Assembly: GCA_020425605.1 (NCBI GenBank)
Contig: JAGQRH010000021.1
Location: 1,791 to 65,790, forward strand
Direction: 5' to 3'
Length of the DNA: 64,000 nucleotides
From: Planctomycetota bacterium
Lineage (GTDB): Bacteria > Planctomycetota > UBA8742 > UBA2392
Positions 24,060 to 44,287 of this stretch are shown here, in pieces. Below the pieces are notes generated by a model. That model was not told the DNA's origin. It searched no databases and worked only from the letters and a program-made list of their open reading frames with translations. Position 1 is the stretch's first letter. Every line of letters starts with the position of its first letter. A program made the translations under genes and the position numbers.

Positions 24060-26006
24060 ATGCAAAGCTGCACCGCTTGCGGCACAGAGAACCCCAAGGA
24101 AGCCAAGTTCTGCATCAATTGCGGAAATGGCATGGGGGAGCATTCCTCTGACCGCTCATCTCAACCGGATGAAATCGGCCGCGTCCACGACGGCGACGAT
24201 CTTGTATTTGAGGTCGAGGGCGTCAGCTACGACCCGGGGACGGTGGTGCTTGACCGCTACAAGGTTGAGCGCGAACTCGGCCGAGGCGGCATGGGCACAG
24301 TGCTGCTGTGTCGCGACAAGTTCCAGGATGAAGAATTCTGCTGCCTGAAAGTCATCAACCCGCAGCTGATCGACAACGAAGAACTGGTTGAGCGCTTCAA
24401 GTCTGAAGGCCGTATTGCCCGCAAAATTCGCCACCCGGCCATCATTGCCACTCACGACATTTTTGAGTGGAAGGGCCGCTGGCACATCAGCATGGAGTTC
24501 TTCCCAGGCATTGTGCTGCGCAAGGTCATCAATGAGGCGGACAGCTCCGGCGTGTCCGTTCCCATGAACGACGCGGTTGCCGTGGTTGAGGCACTGCTTG
24601 AGGGCCTGAATGCCGCGCATGAAGTCACTGTGCACCGCGACCTCAAGCCGGAAAACGTGATGCTGAAGGGCAAGCCCGGCACCCCGGACTTCCAGCTCAA
24701 GATCCTCGATTTCGGAATCGCCAAGAACTTCGAAGTCAGCAATGCCACCATGGCTGAAGTCGCCATGGGTACCACCGGCTACATGGCACCGGAGCAGGCC
24801 CGCGACGCGGCAAACGTCGACCAGCGCGCGGACCTGTATGCGGTAACGGTGATGTTCTATGAGCTGCTGACCGGGCTGCTTCCGGTAGGCAACTACGAGC
24901 CGCCTACCGCGTTGCGCCCGGACCTGCCCGCATGGGTGGATGCATTCGTCGACAAGGGCCTCAAGTCACGCCCGGACGGGCGCTATCCAACAGCCGTCGA
25001 GATGCGCAAGGTGCTTCTCAGCGGCGGCGGGACGACAGACAACCAGGGTCTGTCGCGAACCACGCAGATTCACACCAGCCCACTGGCAGAGAACAAGAAA
25101 GAAAAGGACCCGGTCAAGGACGGCCGCTGGCTTCGAATCAAGCTGATGGATTCGCGCCAGGGACTGGTCCATGCCGTCGCCTACGCGCCGGATGGAAGCT
25201 GCTTCGCCACGGGCGGCGAAGACAACACGGTCAAGGTGTGGGACAGCAAGCGACTCAAGATGCTCGCCGAGCTGAAAGGCCACAGCGCCTGGGTAAAGAC
25301 GCTTCATTTCAGCCCCAACAGCAAGGTGCTGGCGACGGGCAGCGGCGACAAGTCGGTGCGTATCTGGGACACGCGAACCTGGCGCGAGGCTGCCGTGATC
25401 AGCGGCCACGAGACGCCGGTGATCGCAGTGCGCTTCTCGCCCGATGGCAATTTCCTGGCAAGCTCCGGCGCGGACCAGACGGCCGTGCTCTGGGACACCA
25501 GCGACTTTGAGCCCGTCAGCGAAGTGCACGGCGGCGGCATCGCTGCATTGAGCTTCAGCCCCGACGGACTGCTGATGGCCAGCGGAACCCTGAACCAGAG
25601 CGTGGTGGTCTGGGACATGATGACCGGTGAAACGCTGGTTGAGCTCAAAGGCCATCGCGGGACGATCACGAGTCTGAGCTTCAGCCCCGACGGCCGCTAC
25701 CTGCTGACCGGCAGCGACGACAGCACGATCCGCGTCTACGAGATCCCGGGCTTTGAGCGCACGTTGAAGATCCGCGACCATAGCAGCCTGGTGTGGTCCA
25801 TCGCGTTCACCAACGACGCGCGTGTGATGGCCAGCGCCGGCGAAGACCGCATGCTGGTGCTGCGAAGCATCCCCGATTGGGGCGAAGTCGCGACGTTTGC
25901 CGACCACCCCAAGGGTGTCAGCGGCGTGGCGTTCTCACCGGACGGCAAGAACATGGTCACCACCGGGCGCGAAGGCGGCATCGCCGTCTATTCATTGCAG
26001 GTCTAG
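24060..26006 (+). CDS. Serine/threonine protein kinase with zinc ribbon and WD40 propeller
   Basis: A 648-residue soluble protein. An N-terminal zinc ribbon has Cys4, Cys7, Cys18 and Cys21. The kinase domain (about 67-330) has the glycine loop GRGGMG, Lys97 in the VAIK position, HRDLKPEN with Asp194, and DFG at 217-219. Seven WD40 repeats fill residues about 365-648, each with an FSPDG...WD-like blade, enough for one complete propeller. No membrane helix is present, so it should act in the cytoplasm, with the propeller as substrate or partner platform. A TATACT box lies about 40 bp upstream of the start. Confidence 0.95.
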   Translation: MQSCTACGTENPKEAKFCINCGNGMGEHSSDRSSQPDEIGRVHDGDDLVFEVEGVSYDPGTVVLDRYKVERELGRGGMGTVLLCRDKFQDEEFCCLKVINPQLIDNEELVERFKSEGRIARKIRHPAIIATHDIFEWKGRWHISMEFFPGIVLRKVINEADSSGVSVPMNDAVAVVEALLEGLNAAHEVTVHRDLKPENVMLKGKPGTPDFQLKILDFGIAKNFEVSNATMAEVAMGTTGYMAPEQARDAANVDQRADLYAVTVMFYELLTGLLPVGNYEPPTALRPDLPAWVDAFVDKGLKSRPDGRYPTAVEMRKVLLSGGGTTDNQGLSRTTQIHTSPLAENKKEKDPVKDGRWLRIKLMDSRQGLVHAVAYAPDGSCFATGGEDNTVKVWDSKRLKMLAELKGHSAWVKTLHFSPNSKVLATGSGDKSVRIWDTRTWREAAVISGHETPVIAVRFSPDGNFLASSGADQTAVLWDTSDFEPVSEVHGGGIAALSFSPDGLLMASGTLNQSVVVWDMMTGETLVELKGHRGTITSLSFSPDGRYLLTGSDDSTIRVYEIPGFERTLKIRDHSSLVWSIAFTNDARVMASAGEDRMLVLRSIPDWGEVATFADHPKGVSGVAFSPDGKNMVTTGREGGIAVYSLQV

Positions 26007-38590: not shown

Positions 38591-38962
38591 CTAGCGGGAC
38601 AGGGCCAGGCCGTGACGGTGCAGTGCGCCCTTGATTTCAGCGACGCTCTCATCGCCGAGGCCGGTGTTGCGGACCTGGTTCTCGGTGGTCAACGTCAGGT
38701 CCCGGACGCGCTCGATGCCCAGCGCTCGCAGTTTCTTGTTGATGCGCAGCGCGAGATCGAGCACCTCGAGCGGCTCGGCCAGAATGTCGGTCTCCAGCAG
38801 CCCGCTGTCAGGCAGCTCGCTCTGCTGCAGCCTCTCGGCCATCATGGCGCGGGCGATCCGGAACGACTCGCGGGCAAGCTCCTCGACGTCGTCCCACTCA
38901 CGGCCGATCAACAGGCCCTGAAGTGCCGCCGCTGCGTACAGATCAAGCTGGGTCGATGACAT
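38591..38962 (-). CDS. Free-standing RNA polymerase alpha-CTD-like protein
   Basis: A 123-residue protein. Residues about 65-120 match the RNA polymerase alpha C-terminal domain: LDLALRINKKLRALGIERV, then DLTLTTENQVRNTGLGDES and IKGALHRHGLAL, the two-helix hairpin fold that binds UP elements and activators. The N-terminal half is helical (LDLYAAAALQGLL...WDDVEELARESFRIARAMM) and probably mediates association. No N-terminal assembly domain is present. It starts 2 bp after PP2C-STAND 2, so the two should be coexpressed and may share a signalling path to transcription. Confidence 0.85.
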   Translation of the reverse strand: MSSTQLDLYAAAALQGLLIGREWDDVEELARESFRIARAMMAERLQQSELPDSGLLETDILAEPLEVLDLALRINKKLRALGIERVRDLTLTTENQVRNTGLGDESVAEIKGALHRHGLALSR

Positions 38963-38964
38963 GA

Positions 38965-41900
38965 CTATTCTCCGTCCTGCACCTTCAGTGGCTTGAATGG
39001 TTTCATCCCGCACTTCATGCACTTCTGTAGTGATCGTATCCGAACTTCCGAGCCCTGGTAGCGCTGGCCACAAAGCGGGCACCGTACGCGCACGCGAATC
39101 GCTTCTTCCGGGTTAGCCGGCACGTCGAGCAAATCGACGCCCATGCGCTCAAACCAGCTGGTGCTGTAGCGGTCGTAGCCGTCTGCCTCCGCCATCTCAC
39201 GGGCCTTGGCGGCGAACCTCTGCGCGTTGGCGTTCTTGCCTTGCGATTGCAGAATCCGCGCGCGCAGCGCAGTCAGCAGGAATAACAGCCCGGCCGGCGG
39301 ATCCAGTGAGGCTTCGACGCGTGGAATCGCGTCCAGAACGCCCGCGCTTGCGCCTTCCAGATTCCCTCTGCGGTACTCGGCTAACGCGAGAATGGTCTTG
39401 GCCTGCAACGACGGGGTAATATCCGCGCGCCCGGTATTGGCCTCGAGGATCTCTGTGGCAAGCGCGTGTGCCTCGTCCGGCCGGCTGCATTCAAGCTCTA
39501 CGATCGCGGCCATGTTGCAAGCCCGCAGTCGCAACAGCAACGAGGCCGAAGACCTGGCGTAGGTCAGCGCGTACGTGACCGCTTCCCGCGCGGCGTCCAG
39601 GTCTCCGACATTCAGCGACAACGAAGCCATATCAAGATGCGTGATCGCCACGTTCAGGCTGTGGCCGGTTTCCTTGTAGAGCTCCTGCGCGACGAGGCAG
39701 TGCTCAAGGGCGCCCTCCAGTTCTCCCCGACCTTCGAGCAGTCTGGACGTGGCGAGCTCGAGTGTCGCTATCGCATCCCGCCCGTCGAGGCGGTCCAGGA
39801 AGGGTCGCAGGTCATTGATCTCCAGCTCGGCCTCGTCGTAGCGCTTCTGACGCAGCAGCCCCATGATGAGGTTGATGCGGGCAACGGAAAGCTGGTTCAG
39901 GTCGCCCACGCTCTCCATGATCGCGGCTGCTTCCCGGTGCAGCTTCTCGGACTCAATGCCGCGCGACTGGCGCGACCGCAGGTTGCCGAGGGAAATCTTG
40001 GCCAGTCCGATGCTGCGTTCGTCGCCGACCCTCGTCGCTTCGTCAATCAGGCGCAGGAAGTCGGCGGCGGACAGATCGTCATTCGCCAGCGTTGAGTGCA
40101 TCCGCCCGCGAAGCAGCAGCGTGGAAGACAGTGCCGTGAACTTCCCTGACTCTTCGGCGATGCGGACCGCTTCGTCCATCATGGGGATCGCGTCTTTGTC
40201 GCCGCCGATCGAGAACAGCAACTGGGTTCGCATCTGCAACAACGTGACCCGCGCCATCGGGCCGGCGTTCTGGAACCTGTCCCAGACTTCGGCCATCAGC
40301 GGCCTGATATCGGCCGCGCTTCGCTTGTCGCGGCTGGTGAATAGTGCCTCGAAGAGCGGCATGCCGGTCTTCGCGTCATTGTCGTCCAGTGCCGTCCGCA
40401 GTGCCGCGCGCATGTTGTCGCGGTCAAGGCCAAGACGGTCCGTGGCCTCCAGCAGATCGGGCGTGCGGGCGGCCTCGGTCCAGTGGTTCGCGTAGTCGGC
40501 GAAGTATTCTTTGTGTCTCTGCATCAGTGCAGCGGACTCTTCGGGGGAAGTTAGGCGGCCGGCGAATTCGCGAAGGGCCGAGAATGTATTGAAGCGCGTG
40601 CCATACGGCGTGGAATCACGCCAGAGGAAGCTCTTGTCGAGCAGATTGTCGATGGCCTCAATCGCGCTACGGCGCTGGTCACCATCTTCCAACTTTACGA
40701 TTGCCTCGGCGGCGTCGATAAAGAAGCCACCGCGAAACGCGCACAGCTGGCGAAACGCATTCTGCTCCCAGTCGTCGAGGTGCGCATAGCTCCATTCGAG
40801 TGCTTCGCGCATGGACTGGTACGGCAGCCCAAGGTCGCCCGTACGCGCGCGCAGCACGGCGATCTTGCTTGTGGGTGTCTTGAGCTGGCGGAACACTTCG
40901 GCCGGCGCCAGTTGGTTCATGCGCGAGGCAGCCAGCTCGATGGCAAGCGGCACACCCTCAAGCTCGGCGCAGATGCCCATGACGTCCGAGAGGTTGTCCT
41001 CCGTCAGCTGGAACTTGGCGTAGCTGCGCCGGGCGCGATCGACGAACAGCTTCACCGCCGGGAAGTTTGCGGCTTCTTCCAGCGTGGTGTCGCGCGACTT
41101 GGCACCTGGAGATTCGAGGGGCTTGAGTGCAATTTCCGTGTCGTCCGGGATATTGAGTCGGAGCTGGCTGGTCACGATGCAGTCCAGCTTGGGGGCGAGC
41201 GGCTGGAGGGCGCCGACGAACTCATTGACCGCCTCGATCGCTGACTCGGCATTGTCCAGGACCAGCAGCACGGAGCCGCGCAAGGCGAGCCCGTTGCCGA
41301 GGTCGGCTACCGGGTCATTGCCACGCAGAGGAATGCCGACCACCGATGCGACGGCGTTCAACACGTCCTCATCGCCGCGGCATTCCGTGATGGGAACGAA
41401 CCAGGCGCCGCCCGTGTATTTCCGGGCACGGGTTCGGGCGAGCTCAAGTGCAAGGCGGGTCTTGCCCATTCCGGCTACGCCGATGATCGACACGCTGTTC
41501 TTGCCGCCCTCAAGTGCTTCGCCAATCGTCTTGAGTTCCGCTTCACGCCCGACGAATGAGTCCGACCGCTGCGGCAGATTCGATTCGATGCGGGGTTGCC
41601 AGGTGGGTTGCAGCGCGGGCTCAGACCCGCCGCGGAATCGGAATGCCACAAGCGTGACGTCGTCATCGGCTTCGCGCCCGTCGCGGAATGTCTCCACATC
41701 TTCCTGCAGGTGCTGCAGCAGGTCGATCGCGTCTGTGTCCGGCCCGATTGCAAGGCTCTCGCTCAGGCGCTTCTCACCGAACATCTCATCTTTGTTGTCG
41801 GCGGCCTCGCTGACACCGTCCGTGTAGAGCAGCACCCAGTCCCCGGCCGACAGCTGGAGCGTTTCTTCTTCAAGTACGGTCTGCATCGCCTGCACAAATG

Positions 41901-42396
41901 CGGAGCCAAGCACGACACCTTTCGCATGGTGGGATGTAACCGTGCCTTTTGCAGAGCGACGCAGCAGCGGGTTGTGGCCGGCCGAGGCGTAGCGCAGCAT
42001 TCCCGTTTGCAGGTTGATCACTCCATACCAGACCGTGACGAAGCTGCCGGATGGCAGGTCACCGGCAAGGTCCTCGCAGGCGATCTTCAGGACTTCGGCC
42101 GGCGACGGATTGCGTCGGCCATGGATCTGCAGCGTCTTCTTGGCGGCGGCCATCATCAGGGCCGCGTCCAGCCCGTGGCCGGAAACGTCTGCCAGCACGA
42201 TACCCAGCTCGGTGGGGGAGACCTGGATGAAGTCGTAGAAGTCGCCGCCGAGCTCTTCGCAGGCCTCGTAGTGGACGCCGATGTCGAGCTCCGGTACCTG
42301 GGGTGCGTCGGGCAGCATGCCCAATTGCACGGCGCGCGCCCGAACCAATGAGCGTGCGACGCGCGTGCGCTTTTCCGTGTCTCTCGGCGTTGCCAT
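38965..42396 (-). CDS. SpoIIE/PP2C phosphatase-STAND ATPase-TPR protein with zinc ribbon (paralogue 2)
   Basis: A 1143-residue protein parallel in layout to the 31.9-kb gene. The SpoIIE/PP2C domain has GGDFYDF (Asp52) and ADVSGHG (Asp70), with later YTDGVSEA and DDDVTL. The STAND prefix is SFVGREAELKTIGEAL, Walker A GVAGMGKT, Walker B LLVLDN, then VTSQLRL and GVPLAIELAA. Winged-helix and TPR-like repeats follow. It ends in a Cys4 zinc ribbon (CPLCGQRY...CMKCGMKP) instead of the basic Pro-rich tail of paralogue 1. ATG 42396 is preferred to an upstream TTG near the PilB terminator. Confidence 0.92.
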   Translation of the reverse strand: MATPRDTEKRTRVARSLVRARAVQLGMLPDAPQVPELDIGVHYEACEELGGDFYDFIQVSPTELGIVLADVSGHGLDAALMMAAAKKTLQIHGRRNPSPAEVLKIACEDLAGDLPSGSFVTVWYGVINLQTGMLRYASAGHNPLLRRSAKGTVTSHHAKGVVLGSAFVQAMQTVLEEETLQLSAGDWVLLYTDGVSEAADNKDEMFGEKRLSESLAIGPDTDAIDLLQHLQEDVETFRDGREADDDVTLVAFRFRGGSEPALQPTWQPRIESNLPQRSDSFVGREAELKTIGEALEGGKNSVSIIGVAGMGKTRLALELARTRARKYTGGAWFVPITECRGDEDVLNAVASVVGIPLRGNDPVADLGNGLALRGSVLLVLDNAESAIEAVNEFVGALQPLAPKLDCIVTSQLRLNIPDDTEIALKPLESPGAKSRDTTLEEAANFPAVKLFVDRARRSYAKFQLTEDNLSDVMGICAELEGVPLAIELAASRMNQLAPAEVFRQLKTPTSKIAVLRARTGDLGLPYQSMREALEWSYAHLDDWEQNAFRQLCAFRGGFFIDAAEAIVKLEDGDQRRSAIEAIDNLLDKSFLWRDSTPYGTRFNTFSALREFAGRLTSPEESAALMQRHKEYFADYANHWTEAARTPDLLEATDRLGLDRDNMRAALRTALDDNDAKTGMPLFEALFTSRDKRSAADIRPLMAEVWDRFQNAGPMARVTLLQMRTQLLFSIGGDKDAIPMMDEAVRIAEESGKFTALSSTLLLRGRMHSTLANDDLSAADFLRLIDEATRVGDERSIGLAKISLGNLRSRQSRGIESEKLHREAAAIMESVGDLNQLSVARINLIMGLLRQKRYDEAELEINDLRPFLDRLDGRDAIATLELATSRLLEGRGELEGALEHCLVAQELYKETGHSLNVAITHLDMASLSLNVGDLDAAREAVTYALTYARSSASLLLRLRACNMAAIVELECSRPDEAHALATEILEANTGRADITPSLQAKTILALAEYRRGNLEGASAGVLDAIPRVEASLDPPAGLLFLLTALRARILQSQGKNANAQRFAAKAREMAEADGYDRYSTSWFERMGVDLLDVPANPEEAIRVRVRCPLCGQRYQGSEVRIRSLQKCMKCGMKPFKPLKVQDGE

Positions 42397-42510: not shown

Positions 42511-44214
42511 CTAGAAAGTATCCCTCTGCGTGATGGTCGCAATTTCCTCGAGCGTCGTCTGTCCGAGAATGGCCTTGCGCATGCCGTCCATGCGCAGGGT
42601 GCGCAGGCCACCCTGGCGCACTGCATCGCGCTTGATCTCGCCGGCGGCTACCTTCTCGACGATCTGTTGCTTGATGTGCTCACTGATTGGCAGAACTTCG
42701 TGAATCGCAGTTCGGCCGGTGAAGCCGGTCTTGAAGCATGCGTCGCAGCCACGGCCGTGCCAGAGATGGCCATCGGGCAAGTCTGCCATTGAGAGGTCAA
42801 AGCCCTTCAGCTCGCGTTCGTCGGGCACGTACTCGGCTTTGCACTCCTTGCAGATGCGGCGCACAAGCCGCTGGGCGACCACGCAGATAACAGACGAAGA
42901 CACCAGGAACGGCTCAACACCAAGGTCCACCAGTCGAGTCACGCTGGATGGCGCGTCGTTGGTGTGCAGCGTGCTGAACACCAAGTGGCCCGTCAGGGCC
43001 GACTGGATGGCAATGTGGCCCGTTTCAAGGTCTCGAATTTCGCCGACCAGGATGACGTCCGGGTCCTGACGCACGAAGCTTCGCAGCGCCTTGGCGAACG
43101 TCAGGCCCTTCTTCTCGTTCACCTCCACCTGTGATGCACCGGGCATCTGGTATTCGATCGGGTCTTCGATCGTGAGGATGTTGATGTCCGGCCGGTTGAT
43201 GTTGCCGATGGCCGCGTACAGCGTGGTGGTCTTGCCTGAGCCGGTAGGGCCGGTCAGCAGGATGATGCCGTTGGAGTACTCGAGGTAGGTGTTGAACATC
43301 TCCTCGTTGTCCGGCATGAACCCGATGTCTGCCAGGTGGAACTGCTTGTTGTTCTTTTCAAGCAAGCGGATGACTACCCGCTCGCCATACGAAGTCGGGA
43401 CCGTTGAGATACGCAAGTCGATGTCTGCATCGCCCATCTTTACGCTGGCACGACCGTCCTGCGGCAGTCGGCGCTCGGCTATGTCCATGCGCCCCATGAC
43501 CTTGATACGGGCGACGATGGCGTCTTGCAGTTTCTTGCTGGGTGTCATCACGTCGTAAAGCACACCGTCCACGCGGTAGCGCACCTGCAGCTTGTGCTCG
43601 GTCGGCTGGATGTGGATGTCCGACGCGCGCATGCGCAGCGACTGGCTGAAGATGGTGTTCACCAGCTTGATGATCGGCGCCGCGGTGGCGACGTTCAGAA
43701 TGTCGGTCTTCTCGTCGAACTCGAGGTCCGTGTCGAGCATGCCGTCGGCCTCGAGGTCGCGCTCGACTTCGTCGCTGACTTCGGAATTGCCGGCGTAGGA
43801 CTTGTTGATCAGCTCGCTGATTTCGACGCGCGGGGCAAGCACTGGCTCGATCGGCTTGCGCAGCAGGCCTGCCAGCTCATCCATCGGGTACAGGTCTAGC
43901 GGACGGCAGGTTGCGACCCGGACGCTGCCGCCGATTTCATCCAGCGCGACCAGGTTGTAGTTCCGCGCGAAGCCGACCGGCACTTTCTCGGAGAACTTGG
44001 GGTAGGGCTTGTATTTGCCGAGCTCTGCTTCGTAGGGGAGACCCAGTTGCTGGCTGAAGAACTCAAGCATCTCGGTCTCGGCCAGCATGCCGGACTCGAC
44101 GAGCGCTGAATCCAGTTGATCACCGGACTCCTTGGCCTTGGCCAGCAGGTGCTCGACCTTGTCCTCGCGGACGCCGCGCTCTTCGATGAGATACTTTGCA
44201 AGCAGTTGCGACAT
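42511..44214 (-). CDS. Type IV pilus/type II secretion assembly ATPase (PilB/GspE)
   Basis: This 567-residue protein has the N-terminal MshEN-like domain (MSQLLAKYLIEERGV), a long GspE/PilB ATPase core with Walker A GPTGSGKTTT, the Asp box (ILTIEDPIEYQ), Walker B VGEIRD, the His box (STLHTNDA), and a Cys4 zinc site (CKECKAEY, CDACFKTG). It powers pilus extension or pseudopilus assembly. ATG 44214 follows GGGGAAG. No inner-membrane platform protein or pilin gene lies beside it, and the secretin is 24 kb away, so the system is split in this genome. Confidence 0.95.
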   Translation of the reverse strand: MSQLLAKYLIEERGVREDKVEHLLAKAKESGDQLDSALVESGMLAETEMLEFFSQQLGLPYEAELGKYKPYPKFSEKVPVGFARNYNLVALDEIGGSVRVATCRPLDLYPMDELAGLLRKPIEPVLAPRVEISELINKSYAGNSEVSDEVERDLEADGMLDTDLEFDEKTDILNVATAAPIIKLVNTIFSQSLRMRASDIHIQPTEHKLQVRYRVDGVLYDVMTPSKKLQDAIVARIKVMGRMDIAERRLPQDGRASVKMGDADIDLRISTVPTSYGERVVIRLLEKNNKQFHLADIGFMPDNEEMFNTYLEYSNGIILLTGPTGSGKTTTLYAAIGNINRPDINILTIEDPIEYQMPGASQVEVNEKKGLTFAKALRSFVRQDPDVILVGEIRDLETGHIAIQSALTGHLVFSTLHTNDAPSSVTRLVDLGVEPFLVSSSVICVVAQRLVRRICKECKAEYVPDERELKGFDLSMADLPDGHLWHGRGCDACFKTGFTGRTAIHEVLPISEHIKQQIVEKVAAGEIKRDAVRQGGLRTLRMDGMRKAILGQTTLEEIATITQRDTF

Positions 44215-44287
44215 GGCTTCCCCAATCAGCACTTCGCGGCACAGGCCGCCGAGAGTTTAACGCCCGACAGGGCAAAGGGTTGGGAAA

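What the first reader, a model, noticed from the sequence alone, without database searches (positions are those of the whole stretch)
38591..42396. Free-standing alpha-CTD-like protein 2 bp behind a PP2C-STAND gene
Seen: the 123-residue ORF has the RNA polymerase alpha-CTD helix-hairpin pattern with no alpha-NTD, starting 2 bp after the paralogue-2 stop. Known: alpha-CTD binds UP elements and activators. Inference: it may tie the phosphatase-STAND protein to transcription, for example as a decoy or docking partner of RNA polymerase.
Basis: partly seen in the sequence, partly recalled or inferred. Interest (0 to 1): 0.65.

Follow-up and report, generated by a model that had tools for sequence, protein, structure and literature searches.

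The report
Phage-like stand-alone RNA-polymerase-tail protein
A small bacterial protein combines a true copy of the flexible tail domain of RNA polymerase with a helical module otherwise seen in bacteriophages; its place behind a signalling gene is recent and local, and what it does is untested.

Summary
A 123-aa ORF (38591-38962, minus) starts 2 bp after the stop of a SpoIIE/PP2C-STAND-TPR gene. Its residues 57-121 are a genuine RNA polymerase alpha-CTD domain: PF03118 above cut-off, and 1.2 Å over 65 residues against the E. coli alpha-CTD. It is not a bare alpha-CTD. Residues 4-44 are a helical hairpin found as a small stand-alone protein in hundreds of viral sequences. One viral protein carries both modules in the reverse order, and viruses also carry other stand-alone alpha-CTD proteins.

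The gene arose once, in one clade of a Planctomycetota family. It is present in 12 of 12 genomes of that clade, and in none of the other 380 phylum genomes searched. The STAND pairing is not ancestral: only 4 of the 12 have it. In the sister genera the gene follows a PilB-type ATPase instead. The tie of STAND signalling to transcription is therefore at most a genus-level addition.

The alpha-CTD keeps R265, S299 and E302. It has lost N294, has an acidic residue at 298, and has a shortened hairpin. Neither UP-element binding nor an exact RNA-polymerase decoy is favoured. Most likely it is a domesticated phage-type adaptor acting by protein contacts around transcription; function is inferred only.

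The parts
38591..38962 (-). 123-aa hairpin + alpha-CTD protein
   Evidence: orthologues in 12 of 16 family genomes
38831..38953 (-). N-terminal helical hairpin, residues 4-44, phage-type 'DxFAAAALxGLL...A..AM.AER' module
   Evidence: model helices 3-20 and 26-49; viral matches 50-53%; viral scan of the module; phrog_2201 matched by 12 of 12 members, weak
38600..38794 (-). alpha-CTD domain, residues 57-121
   Evidence: PF03118 above cut-off, PDB sequence search, Foldseek
38970..38977 (-). Shine-Dalgarno-like GGACGGAG for the 123-aa gene, lying inside the last codons of the STAND gene
   Evidence: sequence; same motif upstream of the gene in G001, G002 and G003
38965..42396 (-). PP2C(SpoIIE)-STAND-TPR gene ('paralogue 2'), 1143 aa from ATG
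   Evidence: PF07228 1.1e-43, AAA_16/TPR matches
41635..42213 (-). SpoIIE PP2C phosphatase domain of the STAND gene
   Evidence: residues 84-276 of the 1165-aa reading
38968..39087 (-). C-terminal CxxC...CxxC zinc-ribbon-like tail of the STAND gene, conserved in G002-G004, absent from the end of paralogue 1
42511..44232 (-). PilB/GspE-type ATPase (MshEN + T2SSE), the more widespread neighbour of the 123-aa gene

Best explanation
The ORF encodes a small two-module protein: a phage-type helical hairpin joined by a flexible linker to a diverged, stand-alone alpha-CTD. Shown: the fold, the two modules, a single clade-restricted origin, purifying selection, and an association with a PilB-type ATPase locus that is wider than the one with STAND. 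Inferred: the gene was assembled from, or acquired with, phage-type modules at the base of the clade and domesticated. Inferred mechanism: it acts as an adaptor near the transcription machinery by protein contacts (RNA polymerase, sigma or an activator; the hairpin as the second interface), not by classical UP-element binding. In the window's genus a STAND-phosphatase gene later came to lie upstream, so the two are probably co-translated there.
For: Fold and family. Hairpin module in viruses. A viral protein with both modules (L229: PF03118 30.2 bits plus hairpin, reverse order). Other stand-alone viral alpha-CTD proteins. Restriction to one clade. Selection. Neighbourhoods. DNA-contact residues changed only in this group: read against PMC7822876.
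Against: R265, S299 and E302 are invariant, K291 is replaced by R, and two new lysines follow at 268 and 269, so some DNA binding is possible. No viral protein with the same module order was found. The domain tree does not resolve the source of the alpha-CTD: the group sits on a long branch, and the phylum's own TPR double alpha-CTD protein is an alternative source. No interaction or expression data exist.
Confidence: 0.42

Rival explanations
1. It is a DNA-binding protein that uses the alpha-CTD minor-groove mode, a small nucleoid or promoter protein with the hairpin as dimerisation module.
For: R265, S299 and E302 invariant; K291 replaced by R and K at 268 and 269 add positive charge; position 268 is also R or K in the second alpha-CTD of the TPR protein and in about half of the viral ones.
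Against: N294 is replaced by G and K298 by E in 12 of 12, G296 is variable and the loop is one residue shorter. N294 and G296 are kept in every other alpha-CTD examined. R265/N294 enter the minor groove and K291/K298 contact phosphates in E. coli (PMC7822876).
Confidence: 0.22
2. It is the dedicated output or partner of the PP2C-STAND protein, tying phosphatase-STAND signalling to transcription.
For: 2-bp gap in the window and ATGA overlaps in G002 and G003 imply co-translation; the pairing is kept although the STAND proteins are only 45% identical.
Against: The pairing is absent in 8 of 12 genomes with the gene, including two of the window's genus (G001, G005). Related PP2C-STAND proteins are abundant in genomes where the 123-aa protein is absent.
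Confidence: 0.12
3. It is a partner or regulator of the neighbouring PilB-type secretion/pilus ATPase locus, using the alpha-CTD only as a protein-binding HhH fold.
For: Directly downstream of this pilB in G009, G011 and G012 (45-91 bp), and further behind it on the same contig in G000, G002, G003, G004, G005 and G006.
Against: Translocated away from pilB in G001 and apparently G008 yet retained; the same pilB locus lacks the gene in G007, G010, G013 and G015.
Confidence: 0.14
4. It is a decoy of RNA polymerase alpha that titrates activators or sigma.
For: Genuine alpha-CTD fold without an alpha-NTD; an acidic residue at position 261 is kept in 11 of 12.
Against: The surface differs strongly from the genome's own RpoA CTD (profile score only 15 bits for own RpoA); D259 is lost and the DNA face changed.
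Confidence: 0.1

Closest known systems
RNA polymerase alpha subunit C-terminal domain (PF03118; E. coli RpoA 249-329)
   Same: Fold (1.2 Å over 65 residues), R265, S299 and E302, helix arrangement
   Different: No alpha-NTD; N294G, K298E, N268K, C269K, variable G296, loop one residue shorter; not part of RNA polymerase by sequence
Stand-alone viral alpha-CTD proteins (BFVD 'RNA polymerase, alpha subunit, C-terminal', 111-139 aa; Bacillus phage Goe8 gp005; Microbacterium phage Mazun gp26; IMG/VR L179, L182, L185, L229)
   Same: Small protein with one alpha-CTD; L229 also carries the same hairpin module
   Different: L229 has the reverse module order; the sequences read in full otherwise lack a recognisable hairpin; DNA-contact residues are mostly retained in the viral ones
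Viral hairpin module 'LRDYFAAxALxGLL...A..AYxLADAMLAER' (for example L195; weakly phrog_2201, phrog_20565, phrog_30599)
   Same: Residues 4-44, 43-53% identity to L115 and L116
   Different: Usually a 51-93 aa protein without an alpha-CTD
Planctomycetota TPR + two alpha-CTD protein (G000:C73, 428 aa)
   Same: Non-RpoA alpha-CTDs; the second one has R or K at position 268
   Different: TPR N-terminus and two domains, N294 and G296 intact, spread across the phylum

Membership tests
RNA_pol_A_CTD domain family (PF03118) | Profile score above the curated cut-off | tested here: met
   28.9 bits against 23.8; matched by 12 of 12 orthologues
RNA_pol_A_CTD domain family (PF03118) | alpha-CTD fold, better than generic HhH | tested here: met
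   Foldseek PDB hits shown are all RNA polymerase alpha, 1.2 Å over 65 residues; profile scores RpoA far above DMC1 and DNA polymerase IV HhH
RNA polymerase alpha subunit | alpha-NTD that assembles into RNA polymerase | tested here: not met
   123 aa, no NTD; a separate complete rpoA is on contig C74
UP-element-binding alpha-CTD | R265, N294, K291/K298 DNA contacts (PMC7822876) | tested here: not met
   R265 kept; K291 replaced by R; N294 replaced by G and K298 by E in 12 of 12; the genome's own RpoA also lacks K291 and K298 (E, T), so N294 and the loop are the telling changes
Viral hairpin module | Sequence match over the ~45-residue hairpin | tested here: met
   tblastn-confirmed viral matches; invariant T, D, A, L, AM, R positions
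Two-gene STAND/alpha-CTD system | Conserved adjacency across genomes | tested here: not met
   4 of 12 genomes, one genus only
Transcription adaptor / RNA polymerase partner | Physical interaction with RNA polymerase, sigma or an activator | not testable with these tools
   No interaction data and no complex prediction available

The most novel reading that the evidence does not exclude
A phage-derived alpha-CTD mimic was domesticated and, in one planctomycete genus, was placed under a PP2C-STAND switch, forming a signal-gated transcription adaptor.
Probability: 0.07. Interest if true: 0.7.

Novelty: new variant of a known kind. Interest (0 to 1): 0.36.

Why it matters
Stand-alone alpha-CTD proteins are scattered through viruses and Planctomycetota, and no paper on them turned up in the searched open-access library. 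This one has a testable anatomy: which alpha-CTD surfaces are kept and which are rewritten. It also shows a hairpin module of unknown function recurring with an alpha-CTD in two separate lineages, which is a lead to what the common viral hairpin does. For the original idea it removes a tempting but mostly local gene pairing.

Tried and rejected
STAND-alpha-CTD as a conserved pair: rejected beyond the genus. Plasmid relatives: none. Phage GenBank search with the full protein: no match; with the hairpin consensus: only one match at E = 8, whereas a viral relative as query found 43 records. Most 'phage' hits of E. coli alpha-CTD look like host RpoA in mislabelled or contaminated records. The domain tree could not place the alpha-CTD source. 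Literature searches for stand-alone alpha-CTD or planctomycete alpha-CTD proteins gave nothing relevant. The SAM_EPH and DUF6894 Pfam matches are below cut-off.

Full report
What is there. On the minus strand, 38591-38962 encodes 123 residues. Its ATG lies 2 bp after the TAG of the 38965-42396 gene. That gene is a SpoIIE-type PP2C phosphatase with a STAND-like NTPase and TPRs. It also has a zinc-ribbon-like tail that is conserved in its syntenic homologues and absent from the end of paralogue 1. The Shine-Dalgarno-like GGACGGAG of the small gene lies in the last codons of the STAND gene.

The alpha-CTD is real. Pfam gives PF03118 28.9 bits against a cut-off of 23.8 over residues 57-115. PDB sequence searches with the single protein and with a 12-member profile return RpoA chains first and generic HhH proteins far below. 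An AlphaFold2 model from the 12-row alignment (mean pLDDT 81; helices 3-20, 26-49, then the alpha-CTD helices) matches E. coli alpha-CTD at 1.2 Å over 65 residues, TM-score up to 0.90 by target length.

It is not a bare alpha-CTD. Residues 4-44 form a helical hairpin of the kind 'TxRDxFAAAALxGLL...EAYRLADAMLAER'. A viral contig scan with the full profile confirmed two matches, both to the hairpin only, at 50-53% identity. In the 79 kept loci most ORFs are 51-93 aa with little else in them. A viral relative of the hairpin finds 43 GenBank phage records, nearly all annotated as hypothetical proteins. PHROG matches are consistent but weak: phrog_2201 in 12 of 12 members, best 6e-5, most of those shown above 0.01.

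Both modules occur together in a virus. L229 (IMGVR_UViG_3300032218_002403, 1794-2138) has an alpha-CTD at its N-terminus (PF03118 30.2 bits) and the hairpin at its C-terminus (51 bits to the hairpin profile), the reverse order of the window protein. Other viral sequences carry stand-alone alpha-CTDs, most of about 70-180 aa, with varied N-termini. No virus with hairpin-then-alpha-CTD order was found. Phage origin is therefore suggested, not shown.

Distribution. In the window's GTDB family 12 of 16 genomes have a full-length orthologue; of 392 Planctomycetota genomes searched, only those 12 do. A PilB tree puts 11 genomes with the gene on one side of a fully supported branch and the 4 family genomes without it on the other (G012 was left out because its pilB is split). 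The simplest reading is one gain and no loss. Nearby orthologues named in the public collection are all 'Planctomycetota bacterium' MAGs. Selection is purifying, dN/dS 0.15-0.33 from the window gene to seven others.

Neighbourhood. G000, G002, G003 and G004 have STAND2 immediately upstream: 2-bp gap in G000, ATGA overlap in G002 and G003, about 70 bp in G004. G005 has a different 807-aa gene there. G009, G011 and G012 have the pilB gene immediately upstream with gaps of 45-91 bp. G006 has pilB with a 611-aa gene inserted on the other strand. G001 and G008 have the gene elsewhere, and G014 is cut by a contig end. All four STAND2 cases are in the window's genus. PP2C-STAND genes are multicopy in this family and occur in genomes lacking the small protein. 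The pairing is real and probably co-translated in this genus, but it cannot be the basis of the protein's conserved function.

Surface residues. In an alignment keyed to E. coli numbering, the small group keeps R265, S299 and E302 in 12 of 12 and has R at 291. It has G at 294, E at 298, D at 297, K at 268 and 269, and G, K or A at 296, with a one-residue deletion just before. RpoA, both alpha-CTDs of the TPR protein and the viral alpha-CTDs sampled keep N294 and G296 without exception. R265 and N294 enter the minor groove and K291 and K298 contact phosphates in the rrnBP1 complex (PMC7822876). K298 is already T in this phylum's own RpoA, so the loss of N294 and G296 and the shorter loop carry the argument. 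The exact column of 294 depends on where the deletion is placed.

Mechanism. Shown: fold, modules, distribution, selection, neighbourhood. Inferred: the protein works by protein contacts near the transcription machinery, with the hairpin as second interface. DNA binding by the classical mode is less likely but not excluded. An exact decoy of RpoA is disfavoured, because the surfaces a decoy would copy are changed and the profile scores the genome's own RpoA at only 15 bits, against 44 bits for the genome's TPR protein, a sum over two domains.

Relation to known things. It is a member of the PF03118 domain family by score and fold. It is not an RNA polymerase alpha subunit. It resembles the stand-alone viral alpha-CTD proteins in size and make-up. 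I rate it a new variant of a known kind.

Caveats. All relatives are MAGs of about 76-94% completeness, so single absences are weak, but the four absences coincide with one side of the tree and the pilB locus was read in each. The 'RpoA' label was assigned by the number of alpha-CTDs per ORF; one of the ten (G058, 432 aa) clusters with the first alpha-CTD of the TPR proteins and is probably one of those.

Noticed in passing
G000 contig C73 73235-73693 (loci L001, L002, L047); loci L017-L034: A TPR protein with two alpha-CTD domains (428 aa here) occurs widely in Planctomycetota: 86 of 99 genomes show three or more alpha-CTD matches, and 20 loci read had two in one ORF. The first alpha-CTD keeps N268, the second has R or K there. 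No paper on it turned up in the searches made.
   Followed up: partly
L229 1794-2138 (IMGVR_UViG_3300032218_002403): Viral 114-aa protein with alpha-CTD followed by the hairpin module; only this one contig was found.
   Followed up: partly
L222: Viral 134-aa ORF with a possible HhH-like stretch before the same hairpin module; no Pfam support.
   Followed up: no
window 38968-39087: CxxC...CxxC tail of the STAND gene, conserved in G002-G004, not at the end of paralogue 1.
   Followed up: partly
L041 6073-7905: 611-aa ORF on the opposite strand, which looks like a DUF262/HNH (GmrSD-type) restriction protein (judged by eye, no search), between pilB and the alpha-CTD gene in G006.
   Followed up: no
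L045 7517-9218: The pilB gene of G012 is split into two ORFs in that assembly; frameshift or assembly error.
   Followed up: no
window 24060-26003: Ser/Thr protein kinase fused to a WD40 beta-propeller.
   Followed up: no
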